Shown here: one piece after another, positions 17,092-26,332 of the stretch
How positions within the stretch are numbered: the first letter of the stretch is position 1
Layout of the letters: each line of letters starts with the position of its first letter
DNA from: Deltaproteobacteria bacterium
GTDB taxonomy: Bacteria > Bdellovibrionota > Bdellovibrionia > Bdellovibrionales > Bdellovibrionaceae
NCBI GenBank assembly: GCA_017302835.1
Contig: JAFLCC010000002.1
Span: forward strand, 62,001 to 126,000
Length of the DNA stretch: 64,000 nucleotides
Direction: 5' to 3'
Made by a program: the position numbers and the translations under genes
The notes under the pieces: generated by a model
What the model was told of the DNA's origin: nothing
Databases searched by the model: none
The model's input: the letters and a program-made list of their open reading frames with translations, nothing else

Positions 17092-17922
17092 TTACTTTGT
17101 TGTGTTCGTGCACATCTTAAAAGCTTCAACCAAAAAACCGCGAGGGACATTGGGAATATTTCTTGGAGCAACTGGAAAGGGCCATCGGGTGGGGGAGACT
17201 TCCCCGGTTTGTTTAACGACGGCATTCCAATGAAAACCTTCCATGAATTTTTCTGGCTCGTCGGTACCAAAACGCCAAGGAGCCCCCATTTTTTCCAAAA
17301 ATTGAAGCTGTCTTTTCATATAAGGTGCTTCAAGCAAAGTGCGACTTAAAATATCAAAGAGCATCACATCCTTGACCGAGGCTAAAGAATTTATTCTTTC
17401 AAACAAGGTTACAACTTGTGACTCTTCCAAATACATTAACAAGCCTTCAACCATCCACAAGGTCGGCTCTGATCGTTTCCATCCTGCTCCTTGTAATTTC
17501 CCTTGCCACTCCTCGCGCAGATCAACAGCAAGGGCGTGACGTTCGCACCGGAGCGGAGCCTTGGTCAGTTTCATTTGTTTGTAATCTAGAACTTCTTTTC
17601 GATCCAACTCGTACAACTGTGTTCCTTTTGGAAAAGAAAGTCGAAATGCCCTGGTATCCATTCCCGCCGCTAACATGACAATTTGTCGAATCCCCTTAGT
17701 CAGAGCTTCGGTAATTTTTTGGTCTATAAAGTAAGTTCGCACGGCAATGGCAGGCTGGTCACCGGATTCCTCGATGGCCCTTCGTAAGAGGTCCATGCCC
17801 TCGTCCCCGGCTAAGATTTCAGCATAAGGATCAGAGAACAATCTTCCTTCCTTGTCACTGCGTTTGGTTTCCATTGCGCGCATGGCGGCTGTTAACAATG
17901 ATGTTTTTGCTATGGCATCCAT
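17092..17922 (-). CDS. Class I SAM-dependent methyltransferase (LCMT-like)
   Basis: Predicted methyltransferase of the leucine carboxyl methyltransferase-like superfamily (PF04072/TIGR00027). Signature segments are SLLTAAMRAMET at the start, RTYFIDQKI, the SAM-binding VMLAAGMDTRAFRL and ELDRKEVLDYK, and WMVEGLLMYL. 276 residues is normal. In other bacteria members often act on polyketides or unknown small molecules; the substrate here is unknown. A strong AAGGAG ribosome site lies before the ATG. The region leftward of it is accessory in character. Confidence 0.85.
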   Translation of the reverse strand: MDAIAKTSLLTAAMRAMETKRSDKEGRLFSDPYAEILAGDEGMDLLRRAIEESGDQPAIAVRTYFIDQKITEALTKGIRQIVMLAAGMDTRAFRLSFPKGTQLYELDRKEVLDYKQMKLTKAPLRCERHALAVDLREEWQGKLQGAGWKRSEPTLWMVEGLLMYLEESQVVTLFERINSLASVKDVMLFDILSRTLLEAPYMKRQLQFLEKMGAPWRFGTDEPEKFMEGFHWNAVVKQTGEVSPTRWPFPVAPRNIPNVPRGFLVEAFKMCTNTTK

Positions 17923-17987
17923 AAACCTCTCCTTTAGAAAGAATATCTATCCTCAAATAGATTCTCTCAAATGTATTCTCTGAAATA

Positions 17988-18958
17988 TTAAAGGAGGAAA
18001 TTCTCCTGAGTCCAAACTTTTTTGTTAACAATTAATAAATTTTTAAAAGCTTTTGATAAATTGCCAGTGGTTGGAGCCCATTTGACTTCAATAGCCCAAT
18101 CTTTTGCTGAAACAAAATCCACCTCTCCATTTTGATCCGAGTAATATCCAATTCGCTTTGCCCTTCGCATGAGATTTTCACAGGCGATGGTCTCTGCCAA
18201 CTGAGCTTCAAAATGCTCGGGAGTTCTTATGCCTGACCAATCGAGAGCGACCCAGTAGATTAATGGATCCGTGAAGTACAATTTCTTTTCCTTTTTCATT
18301 TGAAAAATATCTTTTTCAGGATTGTAAGCATAGAGAACTCTGACGGCAAAGGCATGCTCAAGAATGCTGATATAATCTTGAGCGGTGTGATAGCTCATCA
18401 TCTGTGTGTTTTCTGCTAGAGTTTGCATGCTGAGACTACTTCCCATGGATTTGGCGATTTGCCCAATCAACTCCATCATGTACTGGGGCTGTTTTTTGAG
18501 TTTGACAACGTCGCCTTCGATCCAACGGCGATAAGTTTTAATCGCTTCTGCAGGATAGTTTCCTTCGGCGCCAGACTCTGCGAGAGCCGTTGGAAATCCC
18601 CCCGTTTTCATGTACAGTCGCAACCCATCCAAGCGAGAAAGCAGAGGCCATTTGGCTTGACTTCTCATTTCGCACCATTCATCAAAATCCATAGGTAACA
18701 GAAACATTTCTCCGGTGCCCTTAGCCCACCTTCCTGGCATAAGATCGAGCCCAAATTTTAGATCATAACTATTGGATCCAGTAAGAATAAATTTTTTATT
18801 TAAACTTGAATCGGTCGCTTTCTTGATGGATCGCCACTTAAGGTTACTCCTGGAGACAGAGATATTTCAGGGTATTTTCTTTTGAATGGTCCTTGATCTA
18901 GGGCTGATAAGTGTTTATCTTCAATCCACCAATTAGTATTTTTCCAAAATAAATTCAT
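17988..18958 (-). pseudogene. Decayed AAA ATPase with DUF4143 domain
   Basis: Two pieces of one gene in different frames. The N-terminal piece runs from about 18958 (MNLFWKNTNWW, then EDKHLSALDQGPFKRKYPEI) to SLSPGVTL near 18841, after which the frame runs on to a stop at 18800 with no P-loop. The C-terminal piece resumes at about 18850 with KWRSIKKATDSSLN, ILTGSNSYDLKFG and MPGRW, and continues through the DUF4143 domain to 17988. In intact relatives the Walker A motif and the Walker B/DEV region lie between these pieces; here they are deleted (roughly 75-100 residues) and the frame is shifted. The product cannot bind ATP. The family is known for single-gene ATPases with a nuclease-like C-terminus, often mobile. 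Confidence 0.85.
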
Positions 18959-21084: not shown

Positions 21085-21758
21085 AAAATACTGAAAGTGA
21101 ATATGCAGGCGATAACTATGAAAGAACTGGAGCTAAATTTAACTTAGATATTTTTCTAAATGCCAGAGAGATGTGTATTTCCACAACTCATAAGATTATC
21201 TCAGAAATTCAATCAGGAATGAATGAAAAAGACATCAAAGATTTGGTAGACAAACATTTTTCAAAAATTGGCGTTACTAAATTCTGGCATCCGACGAAAA
21301 TTAGAATTCAATCAGATACCATGAAAAGTTTTAGGGAATTGTCAGATCCTCATTTGAAATGTGCCATTGGGGATATTTGTTTCTTAGATTTAGGGCCTGT
21401 GATTCAAGAACATGAGGCAGATTATGGCAAAACATTTTTAGTTGGAAAATCAGAAACAAATAGTCTGATTCAAACTTGTCATGCGATTTTTGACAGTTGC
21501 GCGCAAAAGTGGAAATTAGAAAGATTATCAGGAAAAAAATTATTTGAATATGCCAATGAATTAGCTAAGAAACAAGGTTATAAATTAAATCCGATGATGT
21601 CAGGCCATCGGTTAGGTGATTTTCCTCATAAGCTATTCTCCTCTGAAAAATTGTTTGAAATAGAATCAGTACCAACTAAGAATTTGTGGGTTTTAGAAAT
21701 ACACATTATTGATGAATCAAAAAATACCGGCGCCTTTTTCGAAGATATTTTACTTTAA
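21081..21758 (+). CDS. M24 family metallopeptidase (single domain)
   Basis: Pita-bread-fold peptidase of the aminopeptidase P/methionine aminopeptidase clan. All five metal ligands can be placed: Asp in FLDLGP, Asp in EADYGKTF, His in GHRLGD, Glu in VLEIHI and Glu in FFEDILL. 225 residues means the catalytic domain only, without the N-terminal creatinase domain. No export signal, so cytoplasmic. It overlaps the YkuD gene by 4 bases. The last 132 bases are duplicated at 24535-24666, about 96% identical, so the gene end marks one border of a rearrangement. Confidence 0.85.
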   Translation: MKNTESEYAGDNYERTGAKFNLDIFLNAREMCISTTHKIISEIQSGMNEKDIKDLVDKHFSKIGVTKFWHPTKIRIQSDTMKSFRELSDPHLKCAIGDICFLDLGPVIQEHEADYGKTFLVGKSETNSLIQTCHAIFDSCAQKWKLERLSGKKLFEYANELAKKQGYKLNPMMSGHRLGDFPHKLFSSEKLFEIESVPTKNLWVLEIHIIDESKNTGAFFEDILL

Positions 21759-21828: not shown

Positions 21829-23571
21829 TTAAGTTTCAGGATTGTTTTTCAAAGCTGAACAAGAACTAGTTTGGGTGTTTGTGTCAACCAGGCACTTCTC
21901 TAATTCGTCGGCGTCTTCTTTTTTAAATTTTTTTTCTGATATCCAATTTCGAGCCCTAGTTTTCCAGTCTGGTCCCTTAACAGAATTATTAATTTCTTTT
22001 AAAGCCTGATGTAGATCTTGAGGATTTTCTTTGGCTATAGATTCTAAAAATTCTTTTCTAGGAAAGTTTTCTATTTTCGAAAAGGAAATGGATCGATCCA
22101 GTTCTGAAAGCAATTGCTTACGTTCTTTTGCGTTTAAACGAGTATCTGATTTAATACTTTCAATAAGTGAGTTATATTTTTGAGATATACCTAAAATTGC
22201 AATTTGTTGATCCCGTTTTAGTTTTCTAGCTTGGGAGAAATTATTTAAAGCAACAGTTCCAGAAAGTGCTGCTAAACCTAAATCAGTTAAACATTCTGAA
22301 TGATTGATCTGTGAAGTTAATTCAAGATCAATACCGTTATTTTTTTGATTTTCTACACGGGAACAAATAGAACTTTCCATCTTTTGATAATGAGGTGAAC
22401 AAGAGTCAACAATACTTTTGACGACTTCGGTTGTTGAAATCGACGTATTGGCGACACTTGAAATTACATGTCCTAATTTTGCGGCCCTTTGTGTGGCTAT
22501 TCCAATTTGTGCCAAACGACTTAACATTAAGGCAGCTCCTCCAAAAAAAATTGTAACCCCCCCAATGACAACAGAGTTTGCTATGGATGAAATTTTTTCT
22601 CCTTTTCCGTATTTGGAATCTAGATCACATTGTATTTGAGCAAACTGCGAATTTTGATTAACCTTTCGATTTAATATATTTGCTCCAATCCCTGACTGAA
22701 TCGTAGCAACTTTAAAATAGTAATCTTTGTCATACATTCCATTTATTTTAGAAAACTTAACTTGTTCTTCTGAAATTGATATGAGCTTTCTGTTGACAAC
22801 TTGCGATTGAAAACTGTCAGAGTTATCTTCATAGAAATATTTTTTTAATTCATTTAAATCTGGATTTTTTCCAGAGGCATAAGTATTATGAATTTTTTTA
22901 ATTATTTTAAATTTTACAAAACTGGATACTTCCGGATCTTCAGAAAACAACAAGGAATTCTCTAGAACAGCTATCTCGTTTGTCAACTTCTCTATTTTAA
23001 GTTTTGGAGATAAAGTTGGATCCGCTGAAAATACTGGATTACTTGCTTTTATAAAGTTCAACTCCCTTTCCTTTTGCGCAATTTGAAAACTGCTTTCAAC
23101 AAGTTTATCAACAATTCGTTTTTGGGCTTCTTGGGCTTCTTTTATAGAATTATTATTCGTGGGCTTTGAATCAATATTGCGGTTTGAGGGGCTAATAGAC
23201 TTCAATTTATTTTGTAATTCTGGAAATTGAACATTTAGCTTTTTATTTGCTTCGTCTTGGTCCTTAAAAGCTGAATTGTCATCCGTGTTTAATCTGCTCC
23301 AATAGGTAAATTGACATTGATTCTGTATACTTTGCTCCTTTAGAGCTTCATCAAAATATGATTTCGTTAGCAGGTCTTTGCTGAGGTTTTGATTTATCTG
23401 TGACGAGTCCTCAGATTTCGAACAAGTTCCATTGCCTCCGGCAAAACTAGAAGAAGCACACTTTTCTGCAAATTGATTGTACCAGAACTCATTAACACTT
23501 GAACGCAACCAATCGTAGGTTTGGGCCTCCGATTTAAATACTAAAAAAGAAAGAATAAAAAATAAATACAT
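21829..23571 (-). CDS. Secreted or membrane-anchored protein, unknown
   Basis: About 580 residues starting MYLFFILSFLVFKSEA, a Sec signal; a GTG at 23604 could add eleven residues, and neither start has a good ribosome site. The first 300 mature residues are polar, helical and coiled-coil-like. A hydrophobic segment near 320-345 (VVIGGVTIFFGGAALML) could span a membrane, followed by a further weakly hydrophobic stretch and a charged tail (KERKQLLSELDRS). At least six cysteines are spread along it. No family recognised. It diverges from 23695 with a 120-base shared promoter region, and both lie inside the 2.8 kb repeat-bracketed segment. Confidence 0.6.
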   Translation of the reverse strand: MYLFFILSFLVFKSEAQTYDWLRSSVNEFWYNQFAEKCASSSFAGGNGTCSKSEDSSQINQNLSKDLLTKSYFDEALKEQSIQNQCQFTYWSRLNTDDNSAFKDQDEANKKLNVQFPELQNKLKSISPSNRNIDSKPTNNNSIKEAQEAQKRIVDKLVESSFQIAQKERELNFIKASNPVFSADPTLSPKLKIEKLTNEIAVLENSLLFSEDPEVSSFVKFKIIKKIHNTYASGKNPDLNELKKYFYEDNSDSFQSQVVNRKLISISEEQVKFSKINGMYDKDYYFKVATIQSGIGANILNRKVNQNSQFAQIQCDLDSKYGKGEKISSIANSVVIGGVTIFFGGAALMLSRLAQIGIATQRAAKLGHVISSVANTSISTTEVVKSIVDSCSPHYQKMESSICSRVENQKNNGIDLELTSQINHSECLTDLGLAALSGTVALNNFSQARKLKRDQQIAILGISQKYNSLIESIKSDTRLNAKERKQLLSELDRSISFSKIENFPRKEFLESIAKENPQDLHQALKEINNSVKGPDWKTRARNWISEKKFKKEDADELEKCLVDTNTQTSSCSALKNNPET

Positions 23572-23694
23572 TACTTTAAACTTATCGGAAGTGAGTAAAG
23601 TCACAGAACACGACTAGAGTATGGTTTAATAAAAAAATTGCGATTTTGTTAGCTCAAGGGCTAAAAAAATAGATTTAATCTCCGATATAAGTAA

Positions 23695-24432
23695 ATGAAT
23701 TTAGTAAAAATAGTTATTACAATTATGATTCTATTCGAGTCTTGTTTTGGATTAAGACAAATACCACCAAGAGATCAGAGAGAAAAAGCTGTATGTCATA
23801 CTACTTTTAAGGCAGCCATGCATGGAGTCTTCTACGATGAAAAAGGCAAATTATTGCGCCCGGTGCCCTTGAGTGATTCGTCCATGGTGATTGATTCTAA
23901 TTTGATTAAAGTTTTTGAGGAAGTGCGAAAAGGTAATGCTGGAATAAGCCGTCAACAACGTTATTCGGCTCTAATTAAACTAATAAAAACGAAAAAAAAA
24001 CATGGGGAAGATATTCACTTTTGGATATCTAATCGAACAGCGAAAGAAATAAATGATGGAAAAGTTGCAGAATTAATTCCCGAGGGCACTAGACTTGTCC
24101 CTATTTCAGATTCGCGATCTTCTGACCTTTATCGCGATTTAAATAGGGAAATTGAAAAACTAGAAGTAGGCGGAGTTAGTGCAACCTCTTATAAGGACAG
24201 AGAAACTATTACTGATTTATTTTTTGCAGAGAAAAATAATCAGGGGGTAGTTCCTACATTTGTAACAGCTGATCATCAAGTTATAAGGCCTCTTTGTGCC
24301 TTAAATCCACTTTGTGCAGAATTGAAAGGTTATATGAAATTGATTAAAGAACAGTTTGCTGAAGGTTTTGAAGTTACCGTAAAGGACTTATTAGGAAAAG
24401 ATAGAACAATTCGCGTTATTCCATTTAATTAA
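23695..24432 (+). CDS. Secreted protein, possibly PIN-like nuclease fold
   Basis: 245 residues with an N-terminal signal-like stretch (MNLVKIVITIMILFESCFG). The C-terminal half contains KDRETITDLFFAEK and GVVPTFVTADHQVIRPLC: an Asp-containing helix followed by a strand ending T-A-D, the arrangement seen in PIN-type metal-dependent nucleases. This is a weak structural guess. Two cysteine pairs occur near the ends (AVCH, PLCALNPLC). No ribosome site. The gene is divergent from 21829 and precedes a copied piece of the M24 gene. Not a recognised family. Confidence 0.55.
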   Translation: MNLVKIVITIMILFESCFGLRQIPPRDQREKAVCHTTFKAAMHGVFYDEKGKLLRPVPLSDSSMVIDSNLIKVFEEVRKGNAGISRQQRYSALIKLIKTKKKHGEDIHFWISNRTAKEINDGKVAELIPEGTRLVPISDSRSSDLYRDLNREIEKLEVGGVSATSYKDRETITDLFFAEKNNQGVVPTFVTADHQVIRPLCALNPLCAELKGYMKLIKEQFAEGFEVTVKDLLGKDRTIRVIPFN

Positions 24433-24534: not shown

Positions 24535-24666
24535 CATAAGCTGTTCTCCTCTGAAAAATTGTTTGAAATAGAATCAGTAACAACTAAGAATTTGTGGGTT
24601 TTAGAAATACACATTATTGATGAATCAAAAAAAGCCGGCGCCTTTTTCGAAGACATTTTACTTTAA
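24535..24666 (+). pseudogene. Duplicated 3' end of the M24 peptidase gene
   Basis: Identical in frame and length to the last 132 bases of the M24 gene (21627-21758, offset 2908), including the stop, with about five substitutions. It encodes HKLFSSEKLFEIES through GAFFEDILL but has no upstream part. The reading frame is still open, so the copy is recent or under conversion with the parent. Homology begins abruptly at CATAAGCT. The 5' flank (24433-24534) shows no gene. Confidence 0.92.
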
Positions 24667-24673
24667 AAAAAGG

Positions 24674-25432
24674 TCAGTTTGTTTGATCAGAACTAGGATA
24701 TGCAGATATCAGAGTTGGTTTGGCGTCTTTGGGCGCTAACGGGTCAACGAAGAAAATAAGATCGATGTTCATTATAATATTCTGACCTAAATTAATACGT
24801 CCTTTAATTTTGAAACGGTCACTATCTTGAAAAAATATTTTTTGATTTGAAAAATGTCGGTAAATCAAAGCTATTTTTTTAACAATATTTAATTGGTCCC
24901 AATCTCTTGGGAAAAAATGTTTCATATTGGTTTTGTTTGTATTATGTTTTAGACCTGTTTTTTGTTGAGGAAATATCTCTTGCGGAAAACGAATAGCGGT
25001 CACTCCATTTTTAAAAGTTTTAATATCTTGTGGATTTAGTTCAAAATGATTTTTCAGTCCAACATGCAGTGATAGGAATCTATGAAATCCTTCAACAGTA
25101 TGAAGACCTCCAGATAAAATAAGATCATTGCCATCTAATTTATAATCTCCATAAAGTATATGTGAAAGAGTTTTGGGTGATATTTGAAATGGTAAATTGG
25201 TATTTTGAATATATTTTAACGCCTCATCCGATAATGGGGCGCTATTAAGGACGGTAATAATTTCATCAAGGCTGGATTCTTGGTCACTTGAAATTATTGT
25301 TGGTTTCTTATAATAATCGAAACACCTATTATTAAGTGAAAAGCCATCTGTTTTTGCATTTGTACTAAAAATTAAAGCAAAAATTAAATAGAAAAACTGG
25401 CGAGGTTGGAAAATAGAATTAAATTTAATCAT
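24674..25432 (-). CDS. Secreted EndoU-like nuclease
   Basis: Signal peptide (FYLIFALIFSTNAKT) followed by a domain that matches the pattern of bacterial EndoU (PF14436-like) RNases. Counting from an alternative TTG start at 25453, the pattern is SHILYGD (His 98), SGGLHTVEGF (His 118), NGVTAIRFP, a Lys-rich segment leading to HFFPRDW (179-185), then a GRINLG strand and a final LISAYP. EndoU enzymes cut RNA using two His and a Lys, and bacterial ones are toxin domains of CDI and Rhs proteins or stand-alone effectors. Here the domain is stand-alone and exported. Start ATG at 25432 is preferred over the TTG; the ribosome site is poor. A lipoprotein gene lies 108 bases upstream, same strand. Family call is pattern-based. 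Confidence 0.7.
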   Translation of the reverse strand: MIKFNSIFQPRQFFYLIFALIFSTNAKTDGFSLNNRCFDYYKKPTIISSDQESSLDEIITVLNSAPLSDEALKYIQNTNLPFQISPKTLSHILYGDYKLDGNDLILSGGLHTVEGFHRFLSLHVGLKNHFELNPQDIKTFKNGVTAIRFPQEIFPQQKTGLKHNTNKTNMKHFFPRDWDQLNIVKKIALIYRHFSNQKIFFQDSDRFKIKGRINLGQNIIMNIDLIFFVDPLAPKDAKPTLISAYPSSDQTN

Positions 25433-25540
25433 CACATAAATAATTAACAGCAAAATTCATACCTGATATTTTGCTATTGATGTGAAATAATATACAGCCG
25501 TAATAACTTTAAACAGTTGTTTTCAACGAAAACAAAAAAC

Positions 25541-26332
25541 TTATTTAGAAAACTTCCGTTCTAAGATCGTATCAGATAGTGTTAGCTCTTTATCATTCAT
25601 GCTGTTAAACGACAATGTAGCCTTTTGGTGTTCGAAAAAACCTTTATCGTCGTTAAAAAGAAACCATTGGCTAATGAATTGTGCTTTAAGGAATGTATAT
25701 TTCTCTTCTGGATCAATATTTTCTAGCCAGTTAAGATAAGATTTTTGATCGCAGCTTTTTTCATGAAGGTCAGTTGGAATTTTATCGGAGGTGAGATAGG
25801 GGATACTTTTGGTTTCAAGAATATCTAGATCAAGAGTTGCAAATTGGCCTTTTTCGTTACTTTGATGGGTAGCCGGAGCTTTTTTTGGATTTAAGTTGTT
25901 TCCCTTCATAAATAGGGTGCAAGAGACAGGAACAATTTCCTTATTTGCCAAAGCGATAGCTTCTTTCTCAGTTTCTTCCCATGCTTGCTTAGAATCCTGT
26001 GGAGTCAGTTTACTGGTTGCCAACAGTATTTTTTGATTAATCGCATCTAGTTTAGTTTTATAAACTTTATCTGGAGTTGATTCCATATAATAGCTCAATA
26101 CATGGTTCAATCTTACTTCAATCGAGTTATCTTTTTTAAAGATTATCGAATGTCTATAATTTGATTTTTCAATGTATTCAATATCTGAATTGCTTTCATT
26201 GAGAGCATTTGTTTTGAAACCGTTATAGGTATTTTCATCAAAACTTTCTTTTTGTTCTTCTTTTTTTTCTCCGCAAGAGATAAGACAAAATATAAGAATT
26301 GTGAATAAGATTTTAGTTATCGCTGTTTTCAT
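25541..26332 (-). CDS. Lipoprotein upstream of EndoU-like gene (possible immunity partner)
   Basis: 263 residues from the ATG at 26332, chosen because AAGGAG lies 7 bases upstream and a lipoprotein signal follows at once (MKTAITKILFTILIFCLISC, lipobox LISC then GEKK, which suggests outer-membrane sorting). The mature part is charged with no cysteine pattern beyond HEKSCDQ. No family recognised. It is the gene immediately before the secreted EndoU-like nuclease on the same strand, so it could be a periplasm-facing immunity or carrier protein; this is inference from position only. Confidence 0.6.
   Translation of the reverse strand: MKTAITKILFTILIFCLISCGEKKEEQKESFDENTYNGFKTNALNESNSDIEYIEKSNYRHSIIFKKDNSIEVRLNHVLSYYMESTPDKVYKTKLDAINQKILLATSKLTPQDSKQAWEETEKEAIALANKEIVPVSCTLFMKGNNLNPKKAPATHQSNEKGQFATLDLDILETKSIPYLTSDKIPTDLHEKSCDQKSYLNWLENIDPEEKYTFLKAQFISQWFLFNDDKGFFEHQKATLSFNSMNDKELTLSDTILERKFSK

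What the first reader, a model, noticed from the sequence alone, without database searches (positions are those of the whole stretch)
24674..26332. Secreted EndoU-like RNase behind a lipoprotein gene
Reading the leftward gene shows an export signal followed by the spacing and motifs of bacterial EndoU (two His sites, HFFPRDW, final SAYP). The upstream lipoprotein is on the same strand. A stand-alone exported EndoU is uncommon; if secreted it could be used against prey RNA or competitors, with the lipoprotein as immunity or carrier. Motifs are seen; family is recalled; the partner role is inference.
Basis: partly seen in the sequence, partly recalled or inferred. Interest (0 to 1): 0.65.

Follow-up and report, generated by a model that had tools for sequence, protein, structure and literature searches.

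The report
Exported EndoU-type RNase, lone gene
A bacterium of the predatory-bacteria phylum carries a gene for a small exported RNA-cutting enzyme of the known EndoU toxin family; it is a new and divergent but otherwise ordinary member, and the neighbouring lipoprotein gene does not appear to be its partner.

Summary
The leftward ORF 24674-25453 encodes a 259-aa protein with a Sec-type signal and all the EndoU hallmarks: H98 in SHILYGD, H118 in GGLHT, K178 before FPRDW, and S250/Y252 in SAYP. Pfam EndoU_bacteria is its only family hit, but below the curated cut-off (17.4 vs 25.3 bits). A profile built from two unquestioned EndoU domains, with the query left out, finds it at E=1.6e-6, ahead of 1000 shuffles and every other window ORF; hhalign gives 95.8% against 0.1% for a control. 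Structure prediction failed (pLDDT 39 and 47) and adds nothing. The partner idea is not supported. The lipoprotein occurs in two near-complete congeners that lack EndoU, and the three exported EndoU genes whose neighbourhoods were read have no such lipoprotein. Nor is the form rare here: most EndoU genes found in the phylum are 290-640 aa with an export signal. Most likely it is a Sec-exported RNase that digests prey or environmental RNA. Verdict: divergent new member of a known kind, low to moderate interest. A 132-bp duplication of a peptidase-gene 3' end flanks the neighbouring gene pair, one of which looks PIN-like.

The parts
24674..25453 (-). Exported EndoU-like RNase, 259 aa (TTG start; alternative ATG at 25432)
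   Evidence: ORF; Pfam EndoU_bacteria E=0.0058, 17.4 bits, sub-threshold, only hit; query-free EndoU HMM 1.6e-6; hhalign 95.8%
25355..25432 (-). Sec-type signal sequence (from the ATG) MIKFNSIFQPRQFFYLIFALIFSTNA
   Evidence: sequence reading; hydrophobic peak 2.83 over 10 residues with K/R before it
24674..25216 (-). EndoU catalytic domain, residues about 80-259: H98, H118, K178, S250, Y252
   Evidence: alignments with Pfam-passing EndoU domains
25541..26332 (-). Lipoprotein, 263 aa, lipobox LISC|G; genus-restricted family of unknown function, not linked to EndoU
   Evidence: ORF; no family above cut-off; homologs in G001 and G003 at 31-33% identity without EndoU
24535..24666 (+). 132-bp direct repeat copy, 96% identical to 21627-21758 (3' end of an M24-peptidase-like gene including its stop), ending 7 bp from the EndoU stop codon

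Best explanation
The gene encodes a divergent member of the bacterial EndoU ribonuclease family, made as a single-domain protein with a Sec signal and no toxin-delivery module. After export it would fold outside the cytoplasm and cut single-stranded RNA by the metal-independent two-histidine transesterification of the family, probably leaving 2',3'-cyclic phosphates. Its most likely use is breakdown of RNA outside the cell (prey or environmental RNA) as nutrient, one of several exported nucleases known in this phylum. Export without folding in the cytoplasm would remove the need for an immunity protein. Shown: ORF, signal, EndoU motifs and profile membership, absence of a conserved partner. 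Inferred: catalysis, secretion beyond the periplasm, target, nutritional role.
For: EndoU profile evidence (negative control). All catalytic positions of the family are kept (His, His, Lys, Ser/Thr, Tyr; compared with the residues listed in PMC3482391 and the His-His-Lys triad in PMC9086364). Signal sequence. The best relative, L053 (G111, same order, 635 aa), also has a signal directly before the EndoU domain (blastp E=9.5e-11), and it lies alone between genes on the other strand. Many other exported EndoU proteins in the phylum are short. Bdellovibrio degrades prey DNA and RNA and encodes exported nucleases (PMC3593177).
Against: Pfam score is below the gathering cut-off. No confident structure. 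No close homolog in 148 relatives, so catalytic conservation inside an ortholog group could not be tested. Whether this organism is a predator was not tested. An ORF with no ortholog could be a recently acquired or decaying gene.
Confidence: 0.6

Rival explanations
1. It is an antibacterial effector (toxin) released against competitors or kin, with the lipoprotein as cognate immunity or carrier.
For: Characterised bacterial EndoU domains are antibacterial toxins (CdiA-CT STECO31, MafB, BC_0920; PMC9990079); the lipoprotein is upstream on the same strand with an 87-bp gap.
Against: The lipoprotein occurs without EndoU in G001 and G003; other exported EndoU genes have no such lipoprotein; no delivery domain; an envelope lipoprotein would not protect cytoplasmic RNA.
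Confidence: 0.12
2. It is an antibacterial effector without the lipoprotein, entering target cells by another route, immunity being absent or elsewhere.
For: Family precedent; longer phylum members with a C-terminal EndoU domain look like polymorphic toxins (L009, L011, L019).
Against: No translocation domain in a 226-residue mature protein; no recognised immunity gene next to it.
Confidence: 0.2
3. It is a decaying or recently transferred toxin remnant that no longer acts as an enzyme.
For: No orthologs in the genus; lies beside a 132-bp duplication scar; TTG start with weak ribosome-binding site.
Against: Open reading frame, signal and every catalytic position intact.
Confidence: 0.08

Closest known systems
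Pfam PF14436 EndoU_bacteria (clan CL0695)
   Same: Order and spacing of H...GGxH...K..FPxxW...[ST]x[FY]P; only family hit
   Different: Score below curated cut-off; long insertions between motifs; single-domain exported protein
CdiA-CT STECO31 / MafB MGI-1NEM8013 / BC_0920 EndoU toxins (PMC9990079, PMC9086364)
   Same: Predicted EndoU catalytic domain
   Different: Those are C-terminal domains of large delivery proteins with cognate immunity genes; here there is a signal sequence and no delivery module or linked immunity gene
Exported EndoU proteins in the same phylum (L053 635 aa, L056 292 aa, L057 358 aa, L006/L007/L010/L026 about 290 aa open frames)
   Same: Signal sequence plus EndoU domain without a recognised delivery domain
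   Different: 26% identity at best (L053); the L006 group is a separate subfamily with KKG(Y/F)S in place of K..FPxxW
Exported Bdellovibrio nucleases (Bd1244, Bd1934, Bd0934, Bd3507; PMC3593177, PMC7925074)
   Same: Sec-exported nucleases thought to digest nucleic acids outside the cell
   Different: The five with predicted signal sequences are assigned to the endonuclease I superfamily (PMC3593177), not EndoU

Membership tests
EndoU_bacteria (PF14436) | Profile score above the curated cut-off | tested here: not met
   17.4 vs 25.3 bits, E=0.0058; but a query-free EndoU profile gives 1.6e-6 and hhalign 95.8%. So: EndoU-like by homology, not a formal PF14436 member at the curated threshold
EndoU_bacteria (PF14436) | Two catalytic histidines, lysine, and C-terminal [ST]x[YF]P | tested here: met
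   H98, H118, K178, S250/Y252 aligned
EndoU_bacteria (PF14436) | EndoU two-lobed alpha/beta fold | tested here: inconclusive
   AlphaFold2 pLDDT 39 and 47, no fold match
EndoU_bacteria (PF14436) | RNase activity | not testable with these tools
   needs a biochemical assay
Polymorphic toxin / toxin-immunity pair | Delivery or trafficking domain in front of the toxin domain | tested here: not met
   only a signal sequence and about 45 residues before the domain; no other family hit
Polymorphic toxin / toxin-immunity pair | Neighbouring immunity gene that co-occurs with the toxin | tested here: not met
   lipoprotein in G001 and G003 without EndoU; three other exported EndoU genes without the lipoprotein

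The most novel reading that the evidence does not exclude
In the Bdellovibrionota the EndoU toxin domain has repeatedly been turned into a Sec-exported digestive RNase that needs neither delivery module nor immunity gene, giving predators an RNA-degrading counterpart to their exported DNases.
Probability: 0.3. Interest if true: 0.45.

Novelty: new member of a known kind. Interest (0 to 1): 0.27.

Why it matters
It removes a proposed toxin-immunity pair and replaces it with a testable pattern: exported EndoU proteins recur in the Bdellovibrionota, whose known exported nucleases are DNases. If they digest RNA outside the cell, they would help explain how these bacteria consume prey RNA.

Tried and rejected
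Close relatives by single-sequence search: none in 148 relatives (the only other hit, L002, overlaps a stop codon and is spurious), plasmids, phages, viral contigs or genome contigs. PADLOC and PHROGs: nothing significant. PDB by sequence: chance hits only. Structure: a single-sequence model and a three-sequence model were both poor, and their fold searches are not interpretable; relatives fetched by the genome search were not handed to the predictor because its stated rule lists other sources. An EndoU search of the window's own genome reported nothing at E<=0.001 and its controls also gave nothing; the wider run then returned the window's gene at 0.0065. Several weak PF14436 matches (L015, L016, L018, L022-L025) show no EndoU motifs and were discarded. 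Promoter and terminator scans did not exceed shuffles, so operon structure is undecided.

Full report
What is there. The downstream one, 24674-25453, encodes 259 residues from a TTG; an ATG at 25432 gives a conventional signal, MIKFNSIFQPRQFFYLIFALIFSTNA|K. The upstream one, 25541-26332, is a lipoprotein with the lipobox LISC|G.

Is it EndoU? Pfam EndoU_bacteria is the only family that matches, at E=0.0058 and 17.4 bits, under the cut-off of 25.3. To test this independently I took EndoU domains from the same phylum that pass the cut-off (L008, L009) and built a profile without the query. Among 207 window ORFs and 1000 shuffles of the query, the query ORF came first at 1.6e-6; the next was a shuffle at 0.011. 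A profile of five such domains gave 4.2e-9 against 0.087, with the caveat that two of the five (L053, L056) had been found with a profile that included the query. Profile comparison gave 95.8% probability, against 0.1% for the lipoprotein as control. The aligned positions are H98, H118, K178, S250 and Y252, which match the two histidines, lysine and C-terminal alcohol/aromatic residues described for the family (PMC3482391, PMC9086364; the aromatic position is from my own knowledge of XendoU). Structure prediction failed and counts neither for nor against.

Is the lipoprotein its partner? Probably not. Its homologs (31-33% identity) occur in congeners G001 and G003, both about 99% complete, where no EndoU was detected by the query, by Pfam or by the combined profile. 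Their neighbourhoods differ from each other and from the window. Conversely, the exported EndoU genes L053, L056 and L057 have no such lipoprotein among their neighbours. The sample is small, so a local interaction in this one genome cannot be excluded.

How common is the form? In the phylum sample 8 of 291 genomes exceed the Pfam cut-off and 11 of 369 match the combined profile. Of the 14 relatives whose reading frame I read, 11 begin with a hydrophobic export-like segment and have open frames of 286-641 aa (L006, L007, L008, L010, L012, L013, L026, L027, L053, L056, L057); three sit in long proteins of 775-1537 aa (L009, L011, L019). The signal call is a hydrophobicity heuristic, not SignalP, and L027 is a weak match. 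Exported EndoU without a recognised delivery domain is therefore the usual form here.

Mechanism. The most likely reading is an exported, metal-independent RNase used to degrade RNA outside the cell. Bdellovibrio degrades prey DNA and RNA, and five of its endonucleases have predicted Sec signals (PMC3593177). Catalysis, final location and target are inferred. An antibacterial role is the main rival, because characterised bacterial EndoU domains are toxins (PMC9990079).

Surroundings. A 132-bp direct repeat (96%) copies the 3' end of the M24-peptidase-like gene at 21627-21758 to 24535-24666, right beside the EndoU stop codon. Between the copies lies a gene pair (21829-23604 and 23695-24432) that is found next to each other at other places in congeners G002, G003 and G004. 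The simplest reading is that this pair was inserted with duplication of the peptidase-gene tail; the EndoU gene lies just outside. The 245-aa product has conserved acidic residues in a PIN-like arrangement (LDTN...E...FVTAD), but no profile confirms PIN. The names 'M24 peptidase' and 'PIN-like' rest on my reading of the sequences, not on a profile match.

Noticed in passing
window 21627-21758 and 24535-24666: 132-bp direct repeat, 96% identical: the 3' end of an M24-peptidase-like gene including its stop is duplicated 2.9 kb away, flanking a gene pair that sits elsewhere in congeners; looks like an insertion scar.
   Followed up: partly
window 23695-24432 (+): Exported 245-aa protein with invariant D67, N69, E118, D168, D174, D193 across itself and three congeneric homologs, PIN-nuclease-like pattern, no Pfam match; converges on the EndoU gene, so two possible exported RNases lie side by side.
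   Followed up: partly
window 21829-23604 (-): Exported 591-aa protein of unknown family, conserved (42-52%) beside the PIN-like gene in G002, G003 and G004.
   Followed up: partly
L063 11921-13582: YD/RHS-repeat-like exported protein near the same gene pair in congener G004.
   Followed up: no
window about 17100-18900: G+C of about 0.42-0.43 measured over 18000-18899 (surroundings about 0.33-0.37), with a methyltransferase-like ORF and a truncated ATPase-like ORF nearby; possible foreign DNA.
   Followed up: no
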